Position numbers and translations under genes: made by a program
Notes under the pieces: model-generated
Database searches by the model: none
Seen by the model: only the letters and a program-made list of their open reading frames with translations
What the model was told of the DNA's origin: nothing
Origin: Antedon mediterranea
Taxonomy: Eukaryota > Echinodermata > Crinoidea > Comatulida > Antedonidae
NCBI RefSeq assembly: GCF_964355755.1
Contig: NC_092677.1
Span: forward strand, 10,190,601-10,254,600
Length of the DNA: 64,000 nucleotides
Direction: 5' to 3'
In this document: one piece after another, positions 27,701-56,850 of the stretch
How the letters are laid out: the number at the start of each line of letters is the position of its first letter
Position numbering within the stretch: the first letter of the stretch is position 1

Positions 27701-30700
27701 TTGTTAATATGACAGTAAATAAATATAAACGTTTTGTCTGTGCTAGAAGATTTGTCCACCTGTAAATAATTTATTAAATTAAAGGGTCAGTGTATTAATA
27801 TTAATCCAATTCAAAGTTACAATCTGTAAAAAAATGACTGCCTCTTGACAGAATATTAAGAAAACCACTGTTTTATTTTTTTAAATGATAAAATATGTAG
27901 ATTTTCAAACAGATTGTAGAATCCTGTTGTAATGCAAAACATGTTTCTCTGTTGTTTTTGCAACATCACTACAGTATTTTAGTATTTTTAGCTAAAATTA
28001 TATTAGATTCAACATAATTGTAGTGAAAATAAAATTGTCCAATTATTTAATCTCTAAATATATATTTTTCTTTTTATTCTAATTTTAACAAAATGTTGTT
28101 TTGCCCTTTGACCTTTCCCACCACCCACATATTCATCATGAGCTTTGCAATAAAAGTCCGCAAAATATTGACTAACGTCACAGAAGAATGACAACCATAC
28201 TCATCACATGTTATATCATAAAAAATATCCCCTTAAATTTTATTTCATCGGTCATGTGATCCCATTTTGTGGATTTTTGTTGTTAATTTTGTCTATGATC
28301 CCAGAACTTAGCAACAGCATGAATTACTGTATATTAATATTTTTTAGTATTCATTATTGATTTCTATGAATATGATTTTTATATTCAAATATTACATTTA
28401 AGTATAAAAATTTATTATATTTATTTATATTTTTAAATGTTAATATTTTTGTATTGTATTATGTACCTGAGTACGGAGTTTTTTCTTAATATTAGTAAAA
28501 ATATAAACATTTTTGCACATATGGCGTTTCATACGTGTATTACTTGAGAAAAATCGCGGTCGAAATAAAAACAAATAAATTATAAAAAAAAAACAATACA
28601 GACTTGGGGCAAGTCTACTGAGTATGTTATGTGCTCTCCTCTGGTCAAGGTGGGCACTGAATAGAAGAAGCCCTTGATCAGTGATAGGACCAATCAAGGT
28701 GCTTTAAACAGTCCTGGCTTAGTTTCATCCATCATTCAGTGAGGGCGTGTGGCGCAGTGTGTTGGACGTTGGACTACCGATCGTCAGACCTAGGTTCGAA
28801 TCCAACTCTCGCCGCATTGCTTGTATCCGTAGGCAAGATACTTTACTTACGTTGCCTCTCTCCATCCAGGTGTATAAATGGGTACCCAGTTAGATCTAGA
28901 CACAACTTTGCGCTGGTTACCGGCTGCATTATGGGAGTATGTTTCCATACGTGTTTGATCCCAAAAAATACTGGGGTAGTAATCCTTGTAAAGCGCCTTT
29001 GAGCATGATTACTCATGAAAAGGGCGCTATATAAATGTGGTATTATTATTATTATTATTCAGATAATAATGTAAAACTAATTAACATTGTCGTTTGCGAC
29101 AGACGTCAGCCATAATACTAATAATTGATATAATGATTGATTATGATCAAAATCATTATTTTGATTTCAGTCAGTAAGATACAACTTTGATTATGAATAA
29201 ATGGACCACATTTTATTATCATCAATATTATTATTATATATTATTAATATTAATTATACTCAATCAGTATGATCATATTATAACCATTAATATTTGAACC
29301 ACTAAATTCAAAATTATTATTTTCATGATTTAAATCTTAAACATCAAAATCAGTTTCATCATCATAATCAATTGAATAATGTATATTCAAATATGTTTGC
29401 AAATAGAATAGAATTGTAGTGTTTATTTTTATTAACATTATATTATGTGGTGGTTTTTTAATCTAGATTTTACAGTGGCAGGAAAAACAGAATACTAACC
29501 AAATTATATTTTAACCATGTTTATTAAATAATAAAAAATATTAACTTCCAACTATACAATAAAGCCCCTCCTTTAGAACAGCTCTATTCAGGTTACACCC
29601 TAGATAACAAATAGGTGTCCTCTTTAGGGTATCCTCCTTTGGAACAGCTCTATTCAGGTTACACCCTAGATAACAAATAGGTGTCCTCTTTACGGTATCC
29701 CTCCTTTGGAACAGCTCTATTCAGGTTACACTCTAGATAACAAATAGGTGTCCTCTTACGGTATCCCTCCTTTCGAACAGCTCTATTCAGGTTACACCCT
29801 AGATAACAAATAGGTGTCCTCTTTACGGTATCCCTCTTTTGGAACAGCTCTATTCAGGTTACACCCTAGATAACAAATAGGTGTCCTCTTTATGGTATCC
29901 CTCCTTTGGAACAGCTCTATTCAGGTTACACCCTAGATAACAAATAGGTGTCCTCTTTACAGTATCACTCCTTTGGAACAGCTCTATTCAGGTTACACCC
30001 TAGATAACAAATAGGTGTCCTCCTTGCGGTATCACCACTGTACTAAAACACAAGAAACAGTTATAAAATGTGTTCCAAATATAATTTTCATTTTTCAAAA
30101 TAATTCTTAAAATTTGCCAAAAGTCTTTTGTTTATCATCATGATTAAAATAAAACAATGATTATAGAAATATGCTATAATGAATATATTTTAATTTTCAT
30201 AGATTGATTTCTGACGATTCCCCGCAAGACGAAGTTCCTCTTATGATGCACGAGGACGGATTTGAAAGCGAGAATGACAGTTTGACACGAAAGGGTGTTA
30301 AGAAGCAAGGATGCTTGTCCCGCTTACTATGTTGCTCATGGGAGTGTTGTTTCTGGTAAATTTATAAACTCAACTCTCTCAAAAATGGATTACCTGAATA
30401 CAAAAAAAAAAGTCTATTTCATGCCTGGATAAACCGACAAATGCAATATTCTCCTCCAGAGAAAAAAAAAGTAGAAAATTCAGTGAACTCCCCTCTTATA
30501 AATGGTACAGTCCACAACCCCCCCCCCCCCCCCTTTATTTCTGGTTCGTGTAATTTTCTGTATGGCATCCCAATGGTTCTAAATTTGTTGTTTTCAAACC
30601 AGGCTTTCTAAACAAAAGGCACAAGGAAGTGTCAGTAGAACCTTAACAAAAACATGTTTAACAACTATTCTTTCATCTGGAAAATACATCTTTATAAGTT

Positions 30701-39700: not shown

Positions 39701-42700
39701 ATGGCTTGGTGGTATGAGATATTTGGCTATACCAACCCTTGGATTCTTGGTTCAATCTTATCGGATGTCATAATTTATCTTGTGTTCATGTTTGTCCTGT
39801 GTGAATGCTATTTTTGAAATCTTTGGCAATGTGCCAAAATAAAATAACAATTTAATATTTTTGTATTCTGAACTTCCTTGTATTCATTATTAAATATTTT
39901 CTGTTAAACTGATGTTTATAATGGTTTTAATACCTTATCATCATATAAACATCTGTTTTTTAAATCCATGTGGTGACACACATGTTTATTTGCTTTGTTC
40001 ACCAGACCAGCCTATGTGTGAATTTACAACTTAATTTTCAGACACCTCATGTAAAAAGTTTACAGTTTCTAGGTGCCATATCCCTCAATACTAGTAGTGG
40101 TAATCTAGCTTGGTGGTTTACCTGCAATTATAAGGTCCCTGGTTCAAATCTATATGTCTATATTTTAAAATCTATATATTTCTATACTATGTCTATAGTT
40201 TGGTTAATGTAAGTTGTAATAACTACTGTATTTTCTCATTCCACATGCTTTAGAATATATATGTTTTTTTATGAGTGGCCTTGCTGATGAAATAATATTT
40301 AATTAAGCATAAGTTTTATATCACTCATGTTGATTAACAAATCCAAGTCATGTTGATTCCAAAAATATTTAATTGACGTCATCCTAAATATAGATGAGAA
40401 CATTTTATCAGACATGTTTTAATTAATCGACATCGTGACATCCTAAATATTGATAGATGAGAACGTTTTAGCGAACCTGTTTTATAACGTGAATTACTGT
40501 ATAATTGTTCGCATGTTTAGTTTTGTTTCCTCAAATACGATTCCATGATTTAAATCTTTTAATCAGCGCCGATTAATCCGAAGGATGAGTCTATTTTAAT
40601 AAGATTCAGCTGTTAAATTTGATAAACACATGTTTTGTTCGGATATAGCTCTCATTAATATCGTAATTTGGAGACGAAAAAATTAAAATGTAGACCAGTT
40701 AGTGGCACCAATGCCATAATAGAAGTTGTTTATACGTATTGATATTGATCTTTTCCTGCACTCCAGCATTGAAATTTGAGTATTAAGGGGATTATTCACC
40801 CCAATATTTGTGTACAGACTGGGCCGGCTATTTACTGTACATATTCATTTCTTCCTTGAGGAAAAACTTGAGGCTTAATTAAAACGATTGATATTGATCT
40901 GTTCCTGCACTCCAGCATTGAAATGTGAGTGCTAAAGGGATTCACCCCAATATTTGTGTACAGGCCAGGTCGGCTATTTACTGTACATTCATTTCTTCCT
41001 TGAGGAAAAACTTTAGGCTTAATTAAAACGATTGATATTGATCTGTTCCTGCACTCCAGCATTGAAATTTGAGTGATAAGGGGATTCACCCCAATATTTG
41101 TGTACAGGCCAGGTCGGCTATTTACTGTACATTCCTTTCTTGAGGCTTAATTAAAATGGGAAATCAACAATTTTAATCCAATTTGAGTTTCGTTTTTGCA
41201 AGAATGCCTGTCTTACAGGTTTCTTGTCTCTCCATAGTCTCACCCACATTAGACATGTTTTTTACTTGTTGTTCTAATCTCCCTTAGTGTTCTTGCTTGA
41301 CTCTGTGTACTAGTACACTATAACAACCCCTAATCATCTTGAAAGATGTATTAGGTTCTAACTGCACATGAGCTAGATGTGTACACTTGACCTATGGTTT
41401 ATAGTCCTTATCCGAGAAGACTTGTTCTACCACCAGACCAAGTGAGCCTTGAACCCTTGCCAATGTTATGGCTATTTAATTACAGTTCCACTCTTAACTC
41501 TTAACTGCTCAGCCACTTATTGACTCACTCGCTACAATATTTTTTTTTTGTTCAAATTGTGGTCCTTTCTGACTGATAGCTTGCTATGCTCAATTATCCC
41601 ACCCAATACCCACAGTGTGAACCATAAATAAACTCCATACTTGTAATATTTTCCAGTGGATAAATATAAGCTTTAGTTCACACTTAACTTAGCTGGTTTA
41701 CCAGCTGTAAAATTGAATTCCCATGTTGATTGTGTGAACTCTTTTTAATTATAAACATTTTCCATCTCATTTGAACCCTGTTGTGTTTTGTCGCCTAGAT
41801 CAAATATCAAAGAAATTGCCTTTATGGTAATGTTTTTTCCAGTCTACCATACAAAATGATGTCGCCAAGAAAAAAAAAATGAAATTAATAATAACAACTG
41901 TAGTTTGATCAAACATTGTTTATTTTTTGACAAAGTATTTTCGATACAATGGTAAATTTGTCTTTTAGATGTTGGTGACAATCCATTTACAAGATAAATA
42001 TAACACAAGACTTGATACATACATACTTTCTAAATAATTTGATGAAATACAAGTGAAAGAAACAAAAGGAAACAATCAACATAGATTAAATATTAATCTT
42101 AATTAAGTAATTAATTGCAGTTGAATACAGTTGAAATTTGTGAATCTAAAATATTTTTTTGTTCCTTAAAAGTTGACAAAAATGAAACCAGGTCACTTTA
42201 ATTACCTCAAACTTTACTCTTAAATTAAAATAATAAAATATGTGCAGCATTTTAGTGTATATTAAATTACATTATATATTTTGATAGAAATATTAGACAT
42301 GTATGTGCAGTACACCAGCACTAATATTACTAGGGTATGAAAGTGTAATGGTGTACCAGTGCAGTACAGTACTCCATGGTACAGTACTGTACTTTTGTTT
42401 AAAAACACTCCTTCTTATCTATAAATACTGTTACCCATAGAAAACCCATAGAAACCCAGCTACCATAGCTGAGAAATTTACAATGAAAATAGGTTCAATT
42501 TGTTTAGTCTTTCATTGACAAAATTGTTGCAAATATTTCTCATTTATATAATATTCACCCAGTAATTATGTCCACTCAACCATTGAAAACTTTATTTGAG
42601 TTCTATTTATCTACTATGAGAAGCATGGCTACAATAGAGAGGCTTTTAACAGATTTTAAGAGATTATTGTTGATTTTAACAGCTTAAATTTCAGCCAAAT

Positions 42701-45700: not shown

Positions 45701-48700
45701 TGATATGATATCATCACGTCCATATATTGGCACATCACATTGTTGTTACATAACGTGTAGACAGAGCTTTAGAATAAGCATTTAGTTGCTGTACTATACC
45801 ACTATATTGTATTTGGTCAGATGTTTTTCCCTACTCTGATGTAATTTGTACTTCCTAAGTACATTGAGAATACTTGCGAATGACTTACTAATATATATAG
45901 TTTACAGGGAATTTTTAAGTTTTTTTTTTCATTTTCTTAAATTAATCTCAGTTTTGCTTGGATTTTTACATCCGTATTCATGTTATTTGCAAATTGATAG
46001 GATTATGATTTAGTCATTTATGTTCTTGAATCTCTCTTTGATTTCCTTTCTTATTTCCTGTTGCTATAATTACTAAGCCTAACATTAAAAAATGCTGAGT
46101 ATGTTTAATGTATATTTCTTGTAAACTGGACAAATTATTTATAATCATATAATTTATTGACTTAACCACATAGGATAGTGTGCAGTCAAACAAGTTAAAC
46201 AAACATCTTAACATTAAAAACAACCAAAATATAATCAAATCATATTAAGAAACTTTAATTGTCTTCATAAGAAATAAAGAAAAAATTAAAGATAAATATA
46301 CATAAAAGGAACTAAAAAATGACAAGATTAGGATTTTCTCAGTGATGTCTGTTTTGGAGTAAATAAAAATAGAATAAAAATAAATTGTAAAATAAATAAA
46401 TATATTTAGCCCAAACTTAACCTATTTTAGATCAAACATTTTTTGCAAACATTGTCAGAACATATTACTGAATGACCTTTACTGTATGTACTTTCACTTA
46501 TAGTATTATATAGCATAGTACCCTAATATGTTTAAAAAAAGTTTTTTACATTCATTAAAAGTTAAAATAGAATTAAATTTTCTACATAATTTAATGTTAT
46601 ATTCAAAGATTTTAATTTATATGTTAAAAAAGGGATTCTTTTGTAATGTTGTGTGTTTTTGAAAGAAAATAAATGTTTATTTGATTGATTGACATTTACC
46701 TCAACTGTGTTTGTTTTCATAGGTGACGGTGGCAATGATGTTAGTATGATTCAAGCAGCTAATGTAGGCGTTGGTATCGTTGGAAAGGTTGGTGTTTTTA
46801 ATATTCTTAAGCTCTGTAAAACTATAAAACTAGTTCGACAAAAAAAAGTGTGACGTTCCCAAATATGGTAGTGATATGCTTAAATATCGTAGTGATATGT
46901 TAAATGTTAAATTTATTATTGATATCATCATATCCATATATAGGCACATCACATCAAGTTTGATATATGTAGACAGAGCTTTACAAGCAAATTAAAATAA
47001 TGCTTTCCATCAAAATTATCAATGCAAGAAGCAACCCCACTACATTTTTGTGTTTAATGCATCTCCAACATATAATAGGTGGATCCAGATGGGAGGACTA
47101 ATTTTTTAGAATTACAGCCATGCAAAAGATAGAATTAGGTTGCGTTCAGCACTTAAACATTTTTAGGTCCTGGGCTGTCTCTATTTCAAAATCTGAGACC
47201 TATCACTTCTCACCCCCACATAAAAATCTATTTATTTATTTTTCGTTGATTTATTTTATTTAGGAAGGAAAACATGCGTCGTTGGCCGCAGACTTCTCTA
47301 TCACCCAGTTCAAACACCTTGGATCTCTCTTGATTGTTCATGGACGCAACAGTTACAAACGCTCGGCTGCGCTTAGTCAGTTTGTCATGCATAGAGGTTT
47401 GATCATCTCCACGATGCAGGCCATCTTTTCTTCCGTGTTTTATTTTTCTTCAGTCGCACTTTATCAAGGAATTCTGACAGTAGGGTAGGTTTAAAATCTT
47501 CTTTATTTAAGTAAAAATCTAAGTAAATCACCAAATGCAGGATGAATAATAAACTACAGTATATCTTGCTTATAAACCAAGTCTCATTTGAGGCTTAGGG
47601 AGTGGAGTTGAAAGGGTTATGCCATTAGGTCAGAATTGAACCCTAGATCTTGGGATTGGAAGTCAAGCATGTTAACCACCAAGCTACCGGTACTTGATCA
47701 TTCCAATTTGGATGATCAGCATATTCCACTCTCGCCTGGTCCATTCCCATGGCAATCGGCTAACATAAAAAAAAGTCCAGATTGAAATCACACCCAGAGT
47801 TTGACTATATTTCTTAATCTCTGTATACACTATCAAATTTGATGTGACAAACAAATTTAATGTGCCCATATATGGTCATATCACTACCATATTTGGGCAC
47901 ATCACACTTTTTTGATTAAACTAGTGTAGACAGAGCTTTACATTTTGTATCGAGTATATAATTTCCTCAAACAATGCAAAGTAATATATTATACAATATA
48001 AGTTTTCATTGTTTTTTATCATCAAATATAATGGCAAAGTTTATCATTCAGCTTCCTTTCAATCCAATGTAGATTGTAGTTTTTGTATCAAATGTCTTGA
48101 GTACTGAAATGCAGAGATTAGACATTTTACGATTTATCTTAAGCTCTGTCTACACTATCAAACTTTATGTGACAACAAAATGTGATGTGCCCATATATGG
48201 ACACGATGATGTCATATCACTACCATATTTAAAACATATCACTACCATATTGGGCCGCATCACACTTTCTTGTCAAAATAGTTTGATAGTGAAGACAGAG
48301 CTTTACACACTTTTACACACTTACGACATATGCACGACTCATAGTTTGATAGTGAAGACAGAGCTTTACACACTTTTACACACTTACAACATATGCACGG
48401 CTCATAGTTTGATAGTGAAAACAGAGCTTTACACACTTTTACACACTTACGACATATGCACGGCTCATAGTTTGATAGTGAAGACAGAGCTTTACACACT
48501 TTTACACACTTACGACATGCACGGCTCATAGTTTGATAGTGGCACGGCTCATAGTTTGATAGTGAAGACAGAGCTTTACACACTTTTACACACTTACAAC
48601 ATATGCACGGCTCATAGTTTGATAGTGAAAACAGAGCTTTACACACTTTTACACACTTACGACATATGCACGGCTCATAGTTTGATAGTGAAGACAGAGC

Positions 48701-51120
48701 TTTACACACTTTTACACACTTACGACATATGCACGGCTCATAGTTTGATAGTGAAGACAGAGCTTTACACACTTTTACACACTTACGACATATGCACGGC
48801 TCATAGTTTGATAGTGAAGACAGAGCTTTACACACTTTTACACACTTACGACATATGCACGGCTCATAGTTTGATAGTGAAGACAGAGCTTTACACACTT
48901 TTACACACTTACGACATATGCACGGCTCATAGTTTGATAGTGAAGACAGAGCTTTACACACTTTTACACACTTACGACATAAAACGGCTCATAGTTTGAT
49001 AGTGAAGACAGAGCTTTACACACTTTTACACACTTACGACATATGCACGGCCGGCTCATAGTTTGATAGTGAAGACAGAGCTTTACACACTTTTACACAC
49101 TTACGACATAAAACGGCTCATAGTTTGATAGTGAAGACAGAGCTTTACACACTTTTACACACTTACGACATAAAACGGCTCATAGTTTGATAGTGAAGAC
49201 AGAGCTTTACACACTTTTACACACTTACGACATAAAACGGCTCATAGTTTGATAGTGAAGACAGAGCTTTACACACTTTTACACACTTACGACATAAAAC
49301 GGCTCATAGTTTGATAGTGAAGACAGAGCTTTACACACTTTTACACACTTACGACATAAAACGGCTCATAGTTTGATAGTGAAGACAGAGCTTTACACAC
49401 TTTTACACACTTACGACATAAAACGGCTCATAGTTTGATAGTGAAGACAGAGCTTTACACACTTTTACACACTTACGACATATGCACGGCTCATAGTTTG
49501 ATAGTGAAGACAGAGCTTTACACACTTTTACACACTTACGACATAAAACGGCTCATAGTTTGATAGTGAAGACAGAGCTTTACACACTTTTACACACTTA
49601 CGACATATGCACGGCTCATAGTTTGATAGTGAAGACAGAGCTTTACACACTTTTACACACTTACGACATAAAACGGCTCATAGTTTGATAGTGAAGACAG
49701 AGCTTTACACACTTTTACACACTTACGACATATGCACGGCTCATAGTTTGATAGTGAAGACAGAGCTTTACACACTTTTACACACTTACGACATAAAACG
49801 GCTCATAGTTTGATAGTGAAGACAGAGCTTTACACACTTTTACACACTTACGACATGCACGGCTCATAGTTTGATAGTGAAGACAGAGCTTTACACACTT
49901 TTACACACTTACGACATATGCACGGCTCATAGTTTGATAGTGAAGACAGAGCTTTACACACTTTTACACACTTACGACATAAAACGGCTCATCATAGTTT
50001 TACAAATTAGTAGTTTTTGCTGTTTTACTGATATTATACTTTTGGTTATGTTTTAAGTTTCTGTCATTATTACTAGGTATGTAACGGCATACACTATGTT
50101 ACCAGTATTCTTACTTGTACTGGATCAAGATGTTAATGCAGAGACTGCAATGCTTTATCCAGAATTATATAAAGATTTATTAAAGGTAATATCTAATTTC
50201 AATGGGTATATCATAATTTGTTAACATGATAAATTATCGTATCCTGATCCGCATACAACTAACTCTACTAAACGATCACTGCAATTCAAAGCCATACTAT
50301 TATGTTAAAATGAACATCAAATGTAGGTTTTGACATATACGGTAATAAAATAAACCTGCCTACTAAAGTTGTCTTTAATTGGAGAAAGACTGGTTTATTT
50401 CACTAATTAATTTCACTAATTCTTATAAATTTTTTTTCATTACTCTCAGGGTCGTGAGTTATCCTTTAAGATGTTCTTTATATGGGTGTTAATTAGTATA
50501 TTTCAAGGGGGCGCTATAATGTATGGCGCCCTCTGGCTGTTTAGCGGTGAGTTCATCCACATTGTCGCAATCTCGTTCACCGCGTTAATCATCACTGAGT
50601 TATTAATGGTTGCGTTGACGATACGCACCTGGCATTGGCTGATGGCGGTAGCGGAGTTGCTCAGTTTGTGTGTGTATGTTGCGTCGTTGTTCATATTTGA
50701 TGAATATTTTGGTAAGTACTGTATTATGTTTCTTGTAATTATTATAATGATATTGTAAAGAAAACCATCATACTCAAGAATAGCTAGTTTGCCCTTCTAT
50801 TTACTTGGATAAACAAATAAATGCCATTTTGTTTAATTATACCCCTAATAAATAATGGAATCAACCATTATCTATATTGTTCAATACTGAAACTTAAAAG
50901 CTTTATTAGATTTAATCATCATAATTTATTCATTACTGTTATTAATTAATTTTAATCCAATATAATTTATTTATTTATTACAGATCGAGAGTTCATTACA
51001 ACTTGGCCTTTCTGGTGGAAAGTTACAGTGATAACATTATTTAGTTGTGTACCTCTTTATATTCTCAAATATCTACGAAAGAAATTCAGCCCCCCAAGTT
51101 ACTCAAAACTTTCAGAATAA
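21737..51120 (+). CDS. ATP9B: Class 2 P4-type ATPase, ATP9B/ATP9A orthologue
   Basis: Golgi/endosomal P4-ATPase; the ATP9 class is reported to act without a CDC50 partner. Exons: 21737-21810 (or 26570-26649), 30203-30355, 30753-30903, 31579-31692, 32305-32472, 32671-32722, 33118-33212, 33554-33707, 33894-34060, 34525-34761, 35317-35625, 35998-36159, 36282-36374, 36747-36830, 37144-37314, 37856-38044, 38640-38784, 46723-46787, 47264-47484, 50077-50185, 50450-50711, 50984-51120 (TAA). This gives 1103 or 1105 residues. Motifs seen: LDGETDWK (actuator loop), [12 protein letters not shown] in M4, DKTGTLTEN with the phosphorylated Asp codon at 34729, [20 protein letters not shown], and C-terminal FSPPSYSKL. 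The acidic N-terminal [12 protein letters not shown] is closer to ATP9B than ATP9A; a single pre-duplication ATP9 is likely. M4 reads PLSL where vertebrate ATP9 has PISL. All phases agree; no lesion was seen. Confidence 0.96.
21890..22150. repeat. Cluster of TAGGCCTA palindromes
   Basis: AGGCCT recurs about a dozen times in 260 bp, some copies nearly back to back (22085-22130). Single copies are scattered through the whole window. In ATP9 intron 1. Confidence 0.8.
22870..23206 (+). mobile_element. MITE-C copy 2, complete
   Basis: 337 bp with perfect terminal inverted repeats of at least 50 bp (ends TGCACTTGTCAATTGTATGA). It is flanked by TTA at 22867-22869 and 23207-23209, a 3-bp target duplication of the TWA type used by PIF/Harbinger elements. 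The interior holds about ten TGACGCA/TGCGTCA motifs. Superfamily assignment is inference from target size only. Confidence 0.9.
23381..23580. mobile_element. MITE-A copy (ATP9 intron 1)
   Basis: Ends AAAGCTCTATCCACACTATC and GTGTAGACAGAGCTTAA. The ATATGGTAGTGATA core is repeated internally three times. Confidence 0.9.
24297..24422. mobile_element. MITE-A copy, short
   Basis: AGCTCTGTCTGACAAAAATG at left shows the first part of the terminal repeat joined directly to the interior, a small deletion. The right end TTTGATAGTGTAGACAGAGC is intact. Confidence 0.9.
25313..25426. mobile_element. MITE-A copy, internally deleted
   Basis: AAGTTCTGTTTACACTATCA and TAGTTTGATAGTGTAAACAG ends are kept, and most of the ATATGG core is missing. 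The ends match each other (TTTACAC/GTGTAAA) while differing from the family (TCTACAC). Confidence 0.85.
26570..26649 (+). CDS. ATP9B: Alternative first coding exon of ATP9
   Basis: ATG at 26570 opens 26 codons plus two bases ([20 protein letters not shown]...DLDDLD) ending at a perfect GTAAGT donor. An in-frame TAA sits at 26549. Splicing to the exon at 30203 keeps frame (CA|A, then [13 protein letters not shown]), exactly as for exon 21737-21810 (AG|A). It could instead be an internal exon: an AG at 26552-26553 would leave an open in-frame entry from 21810, but there is no pyrimidine tract before it. The acidic peptide is unlike the [11 protein letters not shown] form from the upstream exon. 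Confidence 0.65.
28617..29115 (+). mobile_element. Body of 5S-SINE family, split by a tRNA-type SINE
   Basis: Plus-strand relative of the 3232-3506 body: GGTGGGCACTG, AAGCCCTTGATCAGTGATAG, GGTGCTTTAAACAGTCCTGG and, after the insertion, ACATTGTCGTTTGCGACAGA. No 5S head was seen in front of it, so it is truncated or of a headless type. Confidence 0.8.
28740..29056 (+). mobile_element. tRNA-derived SINE, full length
   Basis: RNA polymerase III promoter boxes are present: A box TGGCGCAGTGTG at 28750-28761 and B box GGTTCGAATCC at 28793-28803. A body follows with TGCATTATGGGAGTATG and the tail GGGCGCTATATAAATG, then (ATT)n. ATTCAG flanks both sides (28734-28739 and 29057-29062). It is not a working tRNA gene: the head lacks normal cloverleaf pairing at its ends and runs into the SINE body. 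Confidence 0.9.
29563..30045 (+). repeat. About 67-bp tandem repeat, 7 units
   Basis: Units of 66-67 bp start with GGAACAGCTCTATTCAGG at about 29577, 29643, 29710, 29776, 29843, 29910 and 29977, each with GATAACAAATAGGTGTCCTC. Very similar units indicate recent amplification. It ends 150 bp before ATP9 exon 30203. Diverged single relatives (GGTGTCCTCTTAT, CCTTTGGGACAC) occur near 5370, 34810 and 59520. Confidence 0.95.
30931..31036. mobile_element. MITE-A copy, right end lost
   Basis: AAAGCCTTGTCTACACTATC at left and the core GGGCATATCACTACCATATT. The right terminal repeat is reduced to TAGAGCTTT. It begins 27 bp after an ATP9 splice donor. Confidence 0.8.
33269..33391. mobile_element. MITE-A copy
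   Basis: AAGCTGTGTTTACACTAC at left, TTTGATAGTGGAGACAG at right, with the GACATCATCATGTCCATG core. It begins 56 bp after the donor at 33213. Confidence 0.9.
34086..34240. mobile_element. MITE-A copy, left end truncated
   Basis: CTAGTTGGACAAAAAAAG then three AAATATGGTAGTGATATACC units, and right end AAGTTTGATAGTGTAGA. It starts about 25 bp after the donor at 34061. The ATATGG unit has itself been tandemly copied. Confidence 0.9.
35676..35841. mobile_element. MITE-A copy, near complete
   Basis: TTAAAGCTCTGTCTACACTA at left and TGATAGTGTAGACAGAACTTAA at right, with TTAA-like flanks. It starts about 50 bp after the donor at 35626. Confidence 0.92.
37329..37604 (-). mobile_element. tRNA-derived SINE, minus-strand copy
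   Basis: Reverse-oriented relative of 28740-29056: (TAA)n, then TATATAGCGC, CATACTCCCATAATGCAGC, CTGGGTGGAGAGAGGC and a decayed tRNA head (CACACTGCGCCACATG). More diverged than the other copy; its B box is weakened. In the ATP9 intron after exon 37144-37314. Confidence 0.85.
37683..37832 (-). mobile_element. Second tRNA-type SINE family, diverged copy
   Basis: Shares CTTATAAAC(T/C)AAGTCTCATTT, GGCTTAGGGAGTG and CCTTGAGATT with 47545-47700. The tRNA-like head is at the right, read on the minus strand. Confidence 0.65.
38425..38525. repeat. Interspersed repeat, CATCTTGA...GTGCACA...GATGTGTACA family
   Basis: ACCCCTAGTCATCTTGAA and CCAGATGTGTACAGTG match 41315-41395; a shorter relative is at about 45255. 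Probably fragments of one retroposon family. Confidence 0.6.
39690..39785 (+). repeat. tRNA-like SINE fragment
   Basis: GGCTTGGTGGTATGAG (A-box-like) and TTCTTGGTTCAATCTT (B-box-like) at tRNA-like spacing. In the 7.9-kb ATP9 intron. Too decayed to be a tRNA gene. Confidence 0.5.
40085..40155 (+). repeat. tRNA-like SINE fragment
   Basis: TAGCTTGGTGGTTTACC and GGTCCCTGGTTCAAATC are good A- and B-box look-alikes, related to the heads at 39690 and 47545-47700. Confidence 0.55.
40736..41155. repeat. About 145-bp tandem repeat, 3 units
   Basis: Units start near 40738, 40885 and 41028 with TGATATTGATCTGTTCCTGC, continue CTCCAGCATTGAAAT and CACCCCAATATTTGTGTACAG, and end TTGAGG(AAAAACTTGAGGC)TTAATTAAAA. 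The third is shortened. The minus-strand frame across it is a product of the repeat. Confidence 0.92.
41305..41525 (-). repeat. SINE-like element with tRNA-like head on minus strand
   Basis: Minus strand 41515-41450 reads TGGCTGAGCAGTTAAGAG (A box) and GGGTTCAAGGCTC (B box). The body contains CATCTTGAAAGATG and TAGATGTGTACAC as at 38425. A similar head (GGCCGAGCGGTTATGAC) ends the element near 45410. Confidence 0.6.
43120..43390. repeat. About 87-bp tandem repeat with CACGTG, 3.3 units
   Basis: Units begin ACCACGTGTATTTATCGTGC (43121, 43207, 43295), continue GAGCCGAACTATTGTTGT and TAATGTACACGCACTGTACC, and end CCTCTTGTAAAAATC. The third is shortened. Mid-intron in the 7.9-kb ATP9 intron; the frame across it follows the periodicity. 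Confidence 0.93.
45255..45420 (-). repeat. SINE-like element, minus strand
   Basis: Body phrase AAGTGCACATGATGTGTACA relates it to 38425 and 41305. Minus-strand GTCTAGTGGCCGAGCGGTTA is a tRNA-like A box. Confidence 0.55.
45609..45772. mobile_element. MITE-A copy
   Basis: AAAGCTCTGTCTACACTATC at left; three AAATATGGTAGTGATATTCC units; right end GTGTAGACAGAGCTTTA with the AAGTTTGATA part deleted. Confidence 0.92.
46808..46983. mobile_element. MITE-A copy
   Basis: TTAAGCTCTGTAAAACTATA at left and GATATATGTAGACAGAGCTTTA at right. Starts about 20 bp after the ATP9 donor at 46788. Confidence 0.88.
47545..47700 (-). mobile_element. Second tRNA-type SINE family, better preserved copy
   Basis: On the minus strand the head reads CGGTAGCTTGGTGGTTAAC then GATCTAGGGTTCAATTC (A and B boxes), followed by the body with CACTCCCTAAGCCTCAAATG. 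Confidence 0.7.
47814..47940. mobile_element. MITE-A copy
   Basis: TTAATCTCTGTATACACTATC at left and CTAGTGTAGACAGAGCTTTA at right with the GGTCATATCACTACCATATT core. Confidence 0.88.
48139..48304. mobile_element. MITE-A copy, founder of the adjacent satellite
   Basis: TTAAGCTCTGTCTACACTAT at left. The right end reads AGTTTGATAGTGAAGACAGA, with GAAGAC in place of the usual GTAGAC. That same variant is in every unit of the following array. Confidence 0.92.
48284..49992. repeat. Satellite array of 61/63-bp units, about 27 copies
   Basis: Each unit is the MITE-A right end (AGTTTGATAGTGAAGACAGA-GCTTTA) plus 35-37 bp of flank (CACACTTTTACACACTTACG, then ACATATGCACGGCTCAT or ACATAAAACGGCTCAT). 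Long form 63 bp, short form 61 bp. The first third is almost all long units, the middle (about 49080-49480) short units, and the end alternates long and short. Unit identity is near complete. It ends about 85 bp before ATP9 exon 50077. Because 63 is a multiple of 3, both strands stay open for long runs; these frames are not genes. Confidence 0.97.
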
Positions 51121-56570: not shown

Positions 56571-56604
56571 AAAGTTCTGCCTACACCATCAAACTTAATG
56601 CTTG

Positions 56605-56778
56605 GTTCCCACTTAGCGACGCAACACAAGGACGTAACGCAACGCAAGTGAATTGACCAATCACAAGCGATGGCTTATTCGCTTGTGATTGCTAACTGTC
56701 TATAACTTCGCTTGTCATTGGTTAAAACGCTTGCGTTGCGTTTACGTCCCTGCGTTACGTTCTAGTGGGAACCAAGCT
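56605..56778. mobile_element. MITE-B copy nested inside MITE-A
   Basis: GGTTCCCACTTAGCGACGC to TTCTAGTGGGAACC palindrome, very close to the 5455-5635 copy. TTA on both sides (left AAACTTAATGCTTGG, right CAAGCTTTATGTGAC) is consistent with a 3-bp target duplication. Confidence 0.88.
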
Positions 56779-56801
56779 TTATGTGACACAAATTGTGATC
56801 A

Positions 56802-56807
56802 TTTATT
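56802..56807 (-). terminator. Candidate poly(A) signal for the sulfotransferase, inside MITE-A
   Basis: Minus-strand AATAAA about 45 bases after the stop codon, within the right arm of the outer MITE-A. Confidence 0.4.
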
Positions 56808-56850
56808 TTTGTCAATCTAGTTTGATAGTGTAGGCAGAACTTGTTTCTCT

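What the first reader, a model, noticed from the sequence alone, without database searches (positions are those of the whole stretch)
48139..49992. Satellite born from the right end of a MITE
The 27-unit array in an ATP9 intron is contiguous with a MITE-A copy. Each unit is that copy's right terminal repeat plus 35-37 bp of its flanking DNA. The diagnostic GAAGAC variant in the founder's terminus (all other copies read GTAGAC or close) is in every unit. This is a snapshot of a transposon end turning into a satellite, with the direction of descent readable from the sequence.
Basis: seen in the sequence. Interest (0 to 1): 0.72.

Follow-up and report, generated by a model that had tools for sequence, protein, structure and literature searches.

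The report
Minisatellite grown from a transposon's end
In an intron of a lipid-flippase gene, the tip of one small mobile element and about 38 bases of the DNA beside it have been copied head-to-tail 27 times; this is a clear local example of a known process, and the same thing has happened independently at more than twenty other copies of this element in the genome.

Summary
A complete 161-bp MITE (48142-48302, TTA on both sides) runs straight into 27 full units of 61-67 bp plus one 23-bp fragment (48278-49992), inside a 2,592-bp intron of an ATP9A-type flippase gene. Each unit is 25 bp of the MITE's right end plus 36-38 bp of its flank. The unit occurs nowhere else in the 354-Mb genome. The flank continues into unique intron DNA only at the far end. 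In-situ birth from this MITE end is therefore well supported.

Three points are corrected. GAAGAC is rare but not private: 116 exact ends, 25 of them in this array, against 10,165 GTAGAC. Two units read GAAAAC. It is a single-locus minisatellite, not yet a satellite.

The event is not unique. Pattern searches found 10 further right-end arrays and about 14 left-end arrays, each at its own site, from 2 to about 38 units. Six clean junctions, this one included, share 2-8 bp between the MITE and its flank, as in published models of minisatellite birth. Ends are duplicated more often than MITE interior (0.42% against 0.13%, p=0.035), but no more than random genomic DNA can be shown to be. It is a new member of a known kind.

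The parts
48142..48302 (+). Founder MITE-A copy, 161 bp, both terminal inverted repeats present (left tip AGCTCTGTCTACACTATCAAACT, right tip AGTTTGATAGTGAAGACAGAGCT)
   Evidence: (24-bp arms, 96% complementary)
48139..48141 (+). Left flanking TTA, presumed target-site duplication
   Evidence: flank ttatcTTA|AGCTC
48303..48305 (+). Right flanking TTA; included in every full unit
   Evidence: GAGCT|TTAcacac
48278..49992 (+). Tandem array: 27 full units (61-67 bp) plus one 23-bp fragment
48278..48340 (+). Unit 1, whose first 25 bp are the MITE's own right end; private GACTC variant
48528..48550 (+). 23-bp partial unit; the neighbouring B-C unit pair is repeated on either side of it (210-bp block duplication)
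   Evidence: (period 210)
49368..49804 (+). Alternating 62/63-bp units, a 125-bp higher-order repeat (GFGFGFG)
   Evidence: (period 125)
49988..50003 (+). Distal edge: CTCAT|CATAGTTTTAC, where unique flank carries ATAGTTT matching the unit start, the likely partner in the first duplication
   Evidence: 2-bp overlap as read, 7-bp if one CAT is an extra slip; 524 of 100000 shuffles reach 7
47485..50076 (+). Host intron (GT...AG) of the ATP9A-like gene; the array ends 84 bp before the acceptor
47264..47484 (+). Upstream ATP9A-like exon ([12 protein letters not shown]...ALYQGILTV)
50077..50185 (+). Downstream ATP9A-like exon ([11 protein letters not shown]...ELYKDLLK)

Best explanation
A MITE inserted at a TTA in this intron. 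Its right tip carried or acquired the T-to-A change that gives GAAGAC. A segment made of the last 25 bp of the MITE and about 38 bp of the adjoining intron was then tandemly duplicated, probably by replication slippage or microhomology-mediated repair between ATAGTTT in the MITE end and a matching ATAGTTT just beyond the duplicated flank. Once two copies existed, unequal exchange or slippage expanded the array to 27 units, at times copying blocks of two or three units (the 125-bp and 210-bp higher-order repeats). Shown: the MITE, the contiguity, unit composition, locus uniqueness, block duplications, and the same anatomy at other copies. Inferred: the order of events, the slippage or repair step, and the length of the initiating homology. 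No function is proposed; it is most likely neutral intronic sequence.
For: Unit 1 is physically the MITE's right end. The 63-bp unit and the distal flank match only this locus; all other hits are MITE tips covering at most about 44 bp of the query. GAAGAC is about a 1% variant of the tip genome-wide, yet the abutting MITE and the array share it. MITE body lies only at the proximal edge and unique intron follows only at the distal edge. Eight of ten sampled right-end arrays show the same anatomy, MITE body then tip+flank units then unique flank, each with a different flank. L033 is frozen at exactly two copies with a readable 2-bp junction. Six of six junctions that resolve without filler share 2-8 bp: L027 AGTTTGAT, L028 TG, L029 TA, L032 AA, L033 CT, window AT or ATAGTTT.
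Against: The distal edge reads CATCATAG where units read CATAG, so the 7-bp match needs one extra 3-bp slip; without it only 2 bp are shared. Four other arrays have 3-23 bp of junction sequence that is neither flank nor body (L023, L031, L034, L035), so not all began by simple slippage. Which of the two main unit types (ATATGCAC or ATAAAAC) is ancestral cannot be told. No empty or pre-array allele was available.
Confidence: 0.8

Rival explanations
1. Generic minisatellite formation: this genome makes short tandem duplications everywhere, and with over 10,000 MITE-A ends some are bound to be caught. The MITE contributes only its abundance. This is compatible with the best explanation, as the reason why this locus was hit.
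For: In 200 kb of sampled genome 0.30% of 12-mers are first copies of a repeat at 40-70 bp (0.11% without two repeat-rich pieces). For 5,730 exact ends this predicts 17 loci (bootstrap range 2.4-42) against about 24 seen. The window has several non-MITE arrays.
Against: A word from the MITE's own interior is duplicated less often: 3 of 2,374 copies against about 24 of 5,730 ends (p=0.035), and none of the interior hits is a multi-unit array. Which loci are true was judged by eye and the effect is small.
Confidence: 0.6
2. Transposase- or hairpin-driven initiation: nicks or abortive excision at a MITE end, or stalling at the inverted repeats, provoke repair that copies the end and its flank, so ends are true hotspots.
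For: Arrays at both ends, and tip-only 25-26-bp triplicates at five separate loci; end/interior odds ratio 3.3. A second family (TGGGAACCAAGC end) also shows many tandemly duplicated ends. There are 150 scored matches to the Harbinger-type transposase domain PF13359 in the genome.
Against: Enrichment over random DNA is not shown. The unit's inner boundary is not fixed relative to the tip. Microhomology junctions need no transposase. The link of this MITE to PF13359 is untested.
Confidence: 0.2
3. The array came first, or landed here from elsewhere, and the MITE tip was homogenised into it.
For: None found.
Against: The unit is unique to this locus; the first unit is an integral part of an intact MITE with matching TTA flanks; the flank half of the unit never occurs without the tip.
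Confidence: 0.03
4. Unequal recombination between two neighbouring MITE copies in the same orientation, so that the unit is the interval between two tips.
For: This fits L024 (C1:1.257 Mb, 134-bp unit), where the unit includes a second truncated MITE body and the last unit ends exactly at a MITE tip plus TTA followed by new flank.
Against: In the window unit there is no second MITE body; beyond the 25-bp tip only flank is present.
Confidence: 0.05

Closest known systems
Minisatellite birth by slippage between short non-contiguous direct repeats (Haber and Louis 1998; Taylor and Breden 2000; as summarised in PMC3389668)
   Same: Unit bounded by a short shared sequence (2-8 bp, perhaps 7 here); single-locus array; later growth by block duplication.
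   Different: One of the two short repeats lies inside a transposon tip and the other in host flank, so the parental junction can be read.
TE-derived tandem repeats in the human genome (PMC3389668), including partial Alu duplicates beside a full Alu
   Same: Tandem repeats made at the edge of a transposon insertion after it landed.
   Different: Retroelement, mostly two copies; here a MITE tip plus host flank in 27 copies.
Tetris / TIR-220 satellite of Drosophila virilis (PMC4079207)
   Same: Tandem repeats tied to the terminal inverted repeats of a non-autonomous DNA transposon.
   Different: TIR-220 repeats are internal to the element and have grown into kb-size arrays across many contigs; here the unit includes host flank, cannot travel as part of the element, and stays at one locus.
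Xstir and miDNA4 of Xenopus (as described in PMC12628747 and PMC9659126)
   Same: A MITE as source of a tandem repeat; for miDNA4, microhomology was proposed for growth.
   Different: Those repeats lie inside the MITE; here the unit crosses the MITE boundary into host DNA.

Membership tests
MITE (non-autonomous DNA transposon) | Short, no coding capacity, terminal inverted repeats, high copy number | tested here: met
   161 bp; 24-bp arms 96% complementary; about 5,700 exact 28-bp ends genome-wide
MITE (non-autonomous DNA transposon) | Short target-site duplication | tested here: inconclusive
   The founder has TTA on both sides; across sampled copies the flanks are mostly T(A/T)A, but in about half the two triplets differ at the middle base
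PIF/Harbinger-type MITE | Shares ends with a DDE_Tnp_4 transposase element | tested here: inconclusive
Minisatellite | Tandem array of roughly 10-100-bp units at one locus, kb scale | tested here: met
   27 full units of 61-67 bp over 1.7 kb, locus-unique
Satellite DNA | Long or multi-locus arrays making up a measurable genome share | tested here: not met
   The unit is found only here
Slippage-born minisatellite (Haber-Louis / Taylor-Breden) | Short direct repeat at the two original boundaries | tested here: met
   2-bp AT as read, 7-bp ATAGTTT allowing one CAT slip; at sister loci 2-8 bp in five of five clean junctions. With the 2-bp reading the 5-10-bp size of the Haber-Louis model is not reached
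Slippage-born minisatellite (Haber-Louis / Taylor-Breden) | Copy number variable between individuals | not testable with these tools
   One assembly only

The most novel reading that the evidence does not exclude
The ends of this MITE family are true hotspots for the birth of tandem arrays, more than its interior or ordinary DNA, so a transposon burst has seeded dozens of independent minisatellites frozen at every stage from 2 to about 38 or more units, each carrying its own flank as a birth certificate.
Probability: 0.2. Interest if true: 0.6.

Novelty: new member of a known kind. Interest (0 to 1): 0.36.

Why it matters
How the first tandem duplication of a minisatellite or satellite arises is hard to study, because the founder sequence is usually unknown. 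Here the founder boundary is marked by a transposon tip of known sequence, so the founding junction, its microhomology and the direction of growth can be read. The genome holds about two dozen independent replicates, each with a different flank and copy number. That gives a natural series for testing slippage, end-joining with filler, and transposase-linked models. The single locus itself is ordinary.

Tried and rejected
Uniqueness of GAAGAC as a founder mark: rejected as stated, kept as a roughly 1% variant. Same array elsewhere: searched with the unit and with the distal flank; not found. Right-end-only mechanism: rejected, because left ends do it as often. Strong end enrichment over background: not established; estimates from 200 kb of sampled DNA are too wide. 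The Harbinger transposase link was left open because loci could not be cut.

Full report
WHAT IS THERE. The window lies at C8:10190601-10254600 of a 354-Mb assembly. At 48142-48302 there is a 161-bp MITE with 24-bp inverted arms that are 96% complementary and TTA on each side. From 48278 the sequence becomes a tandem array that runs to 49992. Cutting at ATAGTTTGATAGTG gives 27 full units (eight of 63 bp in form F, eleven of 62 bp in form G, and rarer variants of 61-67 bp) and one 23-bp fragment at 48528. The first unit begins inside the MITE: ATAGTTTGATAGTGAAGACAGAGCT is the MITE's own right end, followed by TTA and about 35 bp of flank.

HOST GENE. The exons at 47264-47484, 50077-50185 and 50450-50711 together encode 197 residues, 196 of which align with the chain named phospholipid-transporting ATPase IIA (ATP9A; PDB 9vdk, E=1e-94); yeast NEO1 also matches. 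The intron is 47485-50076 with GT/AG borders. The array takes up about two thirds of it and stops 84 bp before the acceptor.

IS IT LOCAL? A genome search with the 63-bp unit finds the array here and, elsewhere, only partial hits of up to 44 bp covering the MITE tip. A search with the last unit's flank and the unique DNA beyond it finds only this place. Absence elsewhere in this assembly is subject to the tool's stated limits on repeats and withheld stretches.

THE DIAGNOSTIC VARIANT. The exact end GATAGTGAAGACAGAGCTTWA occurs 116 times, 25 of them in this array, against 10,165 for GTAGAC. So the variant is rare (about 1%) and supports descent from the abutting copy, but it is not private. Two units carry a further change to GAAAAC (48404, 48614).

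GROWTH. Labelled by sequence the units read ABCD-E-BCFFFFGHGGGGGGFGFGFGDFG. The repeated BC pair around fragment E is a block of about 210 bp, and the alternating FG pairs form a 125-bp higher-order repeat; TRF reports both periods. Array growth thus went partly by multi-unit steps, as unequal exchange or long slippage would produce.

HOW IT BEGAN. At the distal edge the array reads ...CGGCTCAT|CATAGTTTTACAAATT. As read, flank and MITE share 2 bp (AT) at the founding junction. If one CAT is a later 3-bp slip, they share ATAGTTT, 7 bp. A 7-base in-phase match this close to the edge appears in 524 of 100,000 shuffles of the flank, so I favour the 7-bp reading, without certainty. Most of the flanking repeats reported for TE-derived tandem repeats in human are also 7 bp (PMC3389668).

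IT IS NOT ALONE. The first 100 listed GTAGAC ends alone contained three more arrays on C1, with periods 42, 134 and 92 bp. A gapped pattern for right ends repeated at 40-70 bp gave 43 hits. I fetched ten loci. All are tandem copies of the right tip with different flanks, from exactly 2 copies (L033, L035) to 16 (L026). In eight of ten a MITE body sits at one edge and unique flank at the other; in L026 and L030 the body is missing. The left-end pattern gave about 14 loci, including one whose array is about 38 units long and which I read in full (L023), and five where only the 25-26-bp tip is triplicated. L024 shows a second route, with units spanning two neighbouring MITEs. A different MITE family with the end TGGGAACCAAGC shows the same at many loci.

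JUNCTIONS. In the window, L027, L028, L029, L032 and L033 the founding junction resolves without filler and shares 2 to 8 bp. In L023, L031, L034 and L035 there are 3-23 bp not explained by either side. This mixture is what slippage and error-prone end joining would leave. That reading is inference.

ARE ENDS SPECIAL? Exact ends: 2,772 right and 2,958 left, with about 24 duplicated loci at 40-70 bp. A word in the MITE interior: 2,374 copies, 3 plausible duplicated loci among 5 hits and no multi-unit array. Fisher p = 0.035. Sampled genome: 0.30% of words, bootstrap 0.04-0.73%, which predicts 2-42 loci. So ends beat interior modestly, and no claim against ordinary DNA is possible. Loci were judged true by eye, and most left-end loci only from the matched string.

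COMPARISON. The works-like match is minisatellite birth at non-contiguous short repeats (Taylor and Breden; Haber and Louis, as summarised in PMC3389668). TE-to-satellite cases such as Tetris (PMC4079207), Xstir and miDNA4 (PMC12628747, PMC9659126) differ because their repeat lies inside the element; here the unit crosses the element's boundary. Satellite status is not met.

VERDICT. The locus is a new, unusually legible member of a known kind. The part worth following is the genome-wide series of independent cases.

Noticed in passing
56573-56841: A MITE-A copy split by a second MITE family (ends GGTTCCCACT...AGTGGGAACC); that second family also shows tandemly duplicated ends at many loci, e.g. 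C10:4544709-4545760 (57 bp) and C1:40739313-40742959 (67 bp).
   Followed up: partly
18233, 23423, 30981, 34114, 35748, 45638, 46850, 47866: MITE-A carries an internal 21-bp repeat (CCATATTTGGGCATATCACTA type) in varying copy number between copies.
   Followed up: no
1527-2571: A 20-bp unit repeated about 53 times, apparently unrelated to MITE-A; also 67 bp x 7 at 29566-30033 and 144 bp x 2.8 at 40738-41141.
   Followed up: no
L028 (C4:36024800-36027200), about 706-1350: A tip+flank array interrupted by an insert of roughly 650 bp, and followed closely by an unrelated 41-bp x 8 array.
   Followed up: no
L035 (C10:23017200-23018600): Two-copy right-end duplicate in which the second copy's subterminal sequence looks closer to the usual MITE-A sequence than its own parent MITE does; perhaps later change in the parent, perhaps copying from another MITE.
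   Followed up: partly
MITE-A copies in sampled loci: The triplets flanking MITE-A are mostly TTA or TAA on each side, but in about half of sampled copies the two sides differ, which a simple 3-bp target duplication does not explain.
   Followed up: no
L025 (C1:1405600-1411600): A 92-bp array of at least 53 units with both orientations of the MITE tip in the unit (CTATCAAACA-AGTTTGATAG).
   Followed up: no
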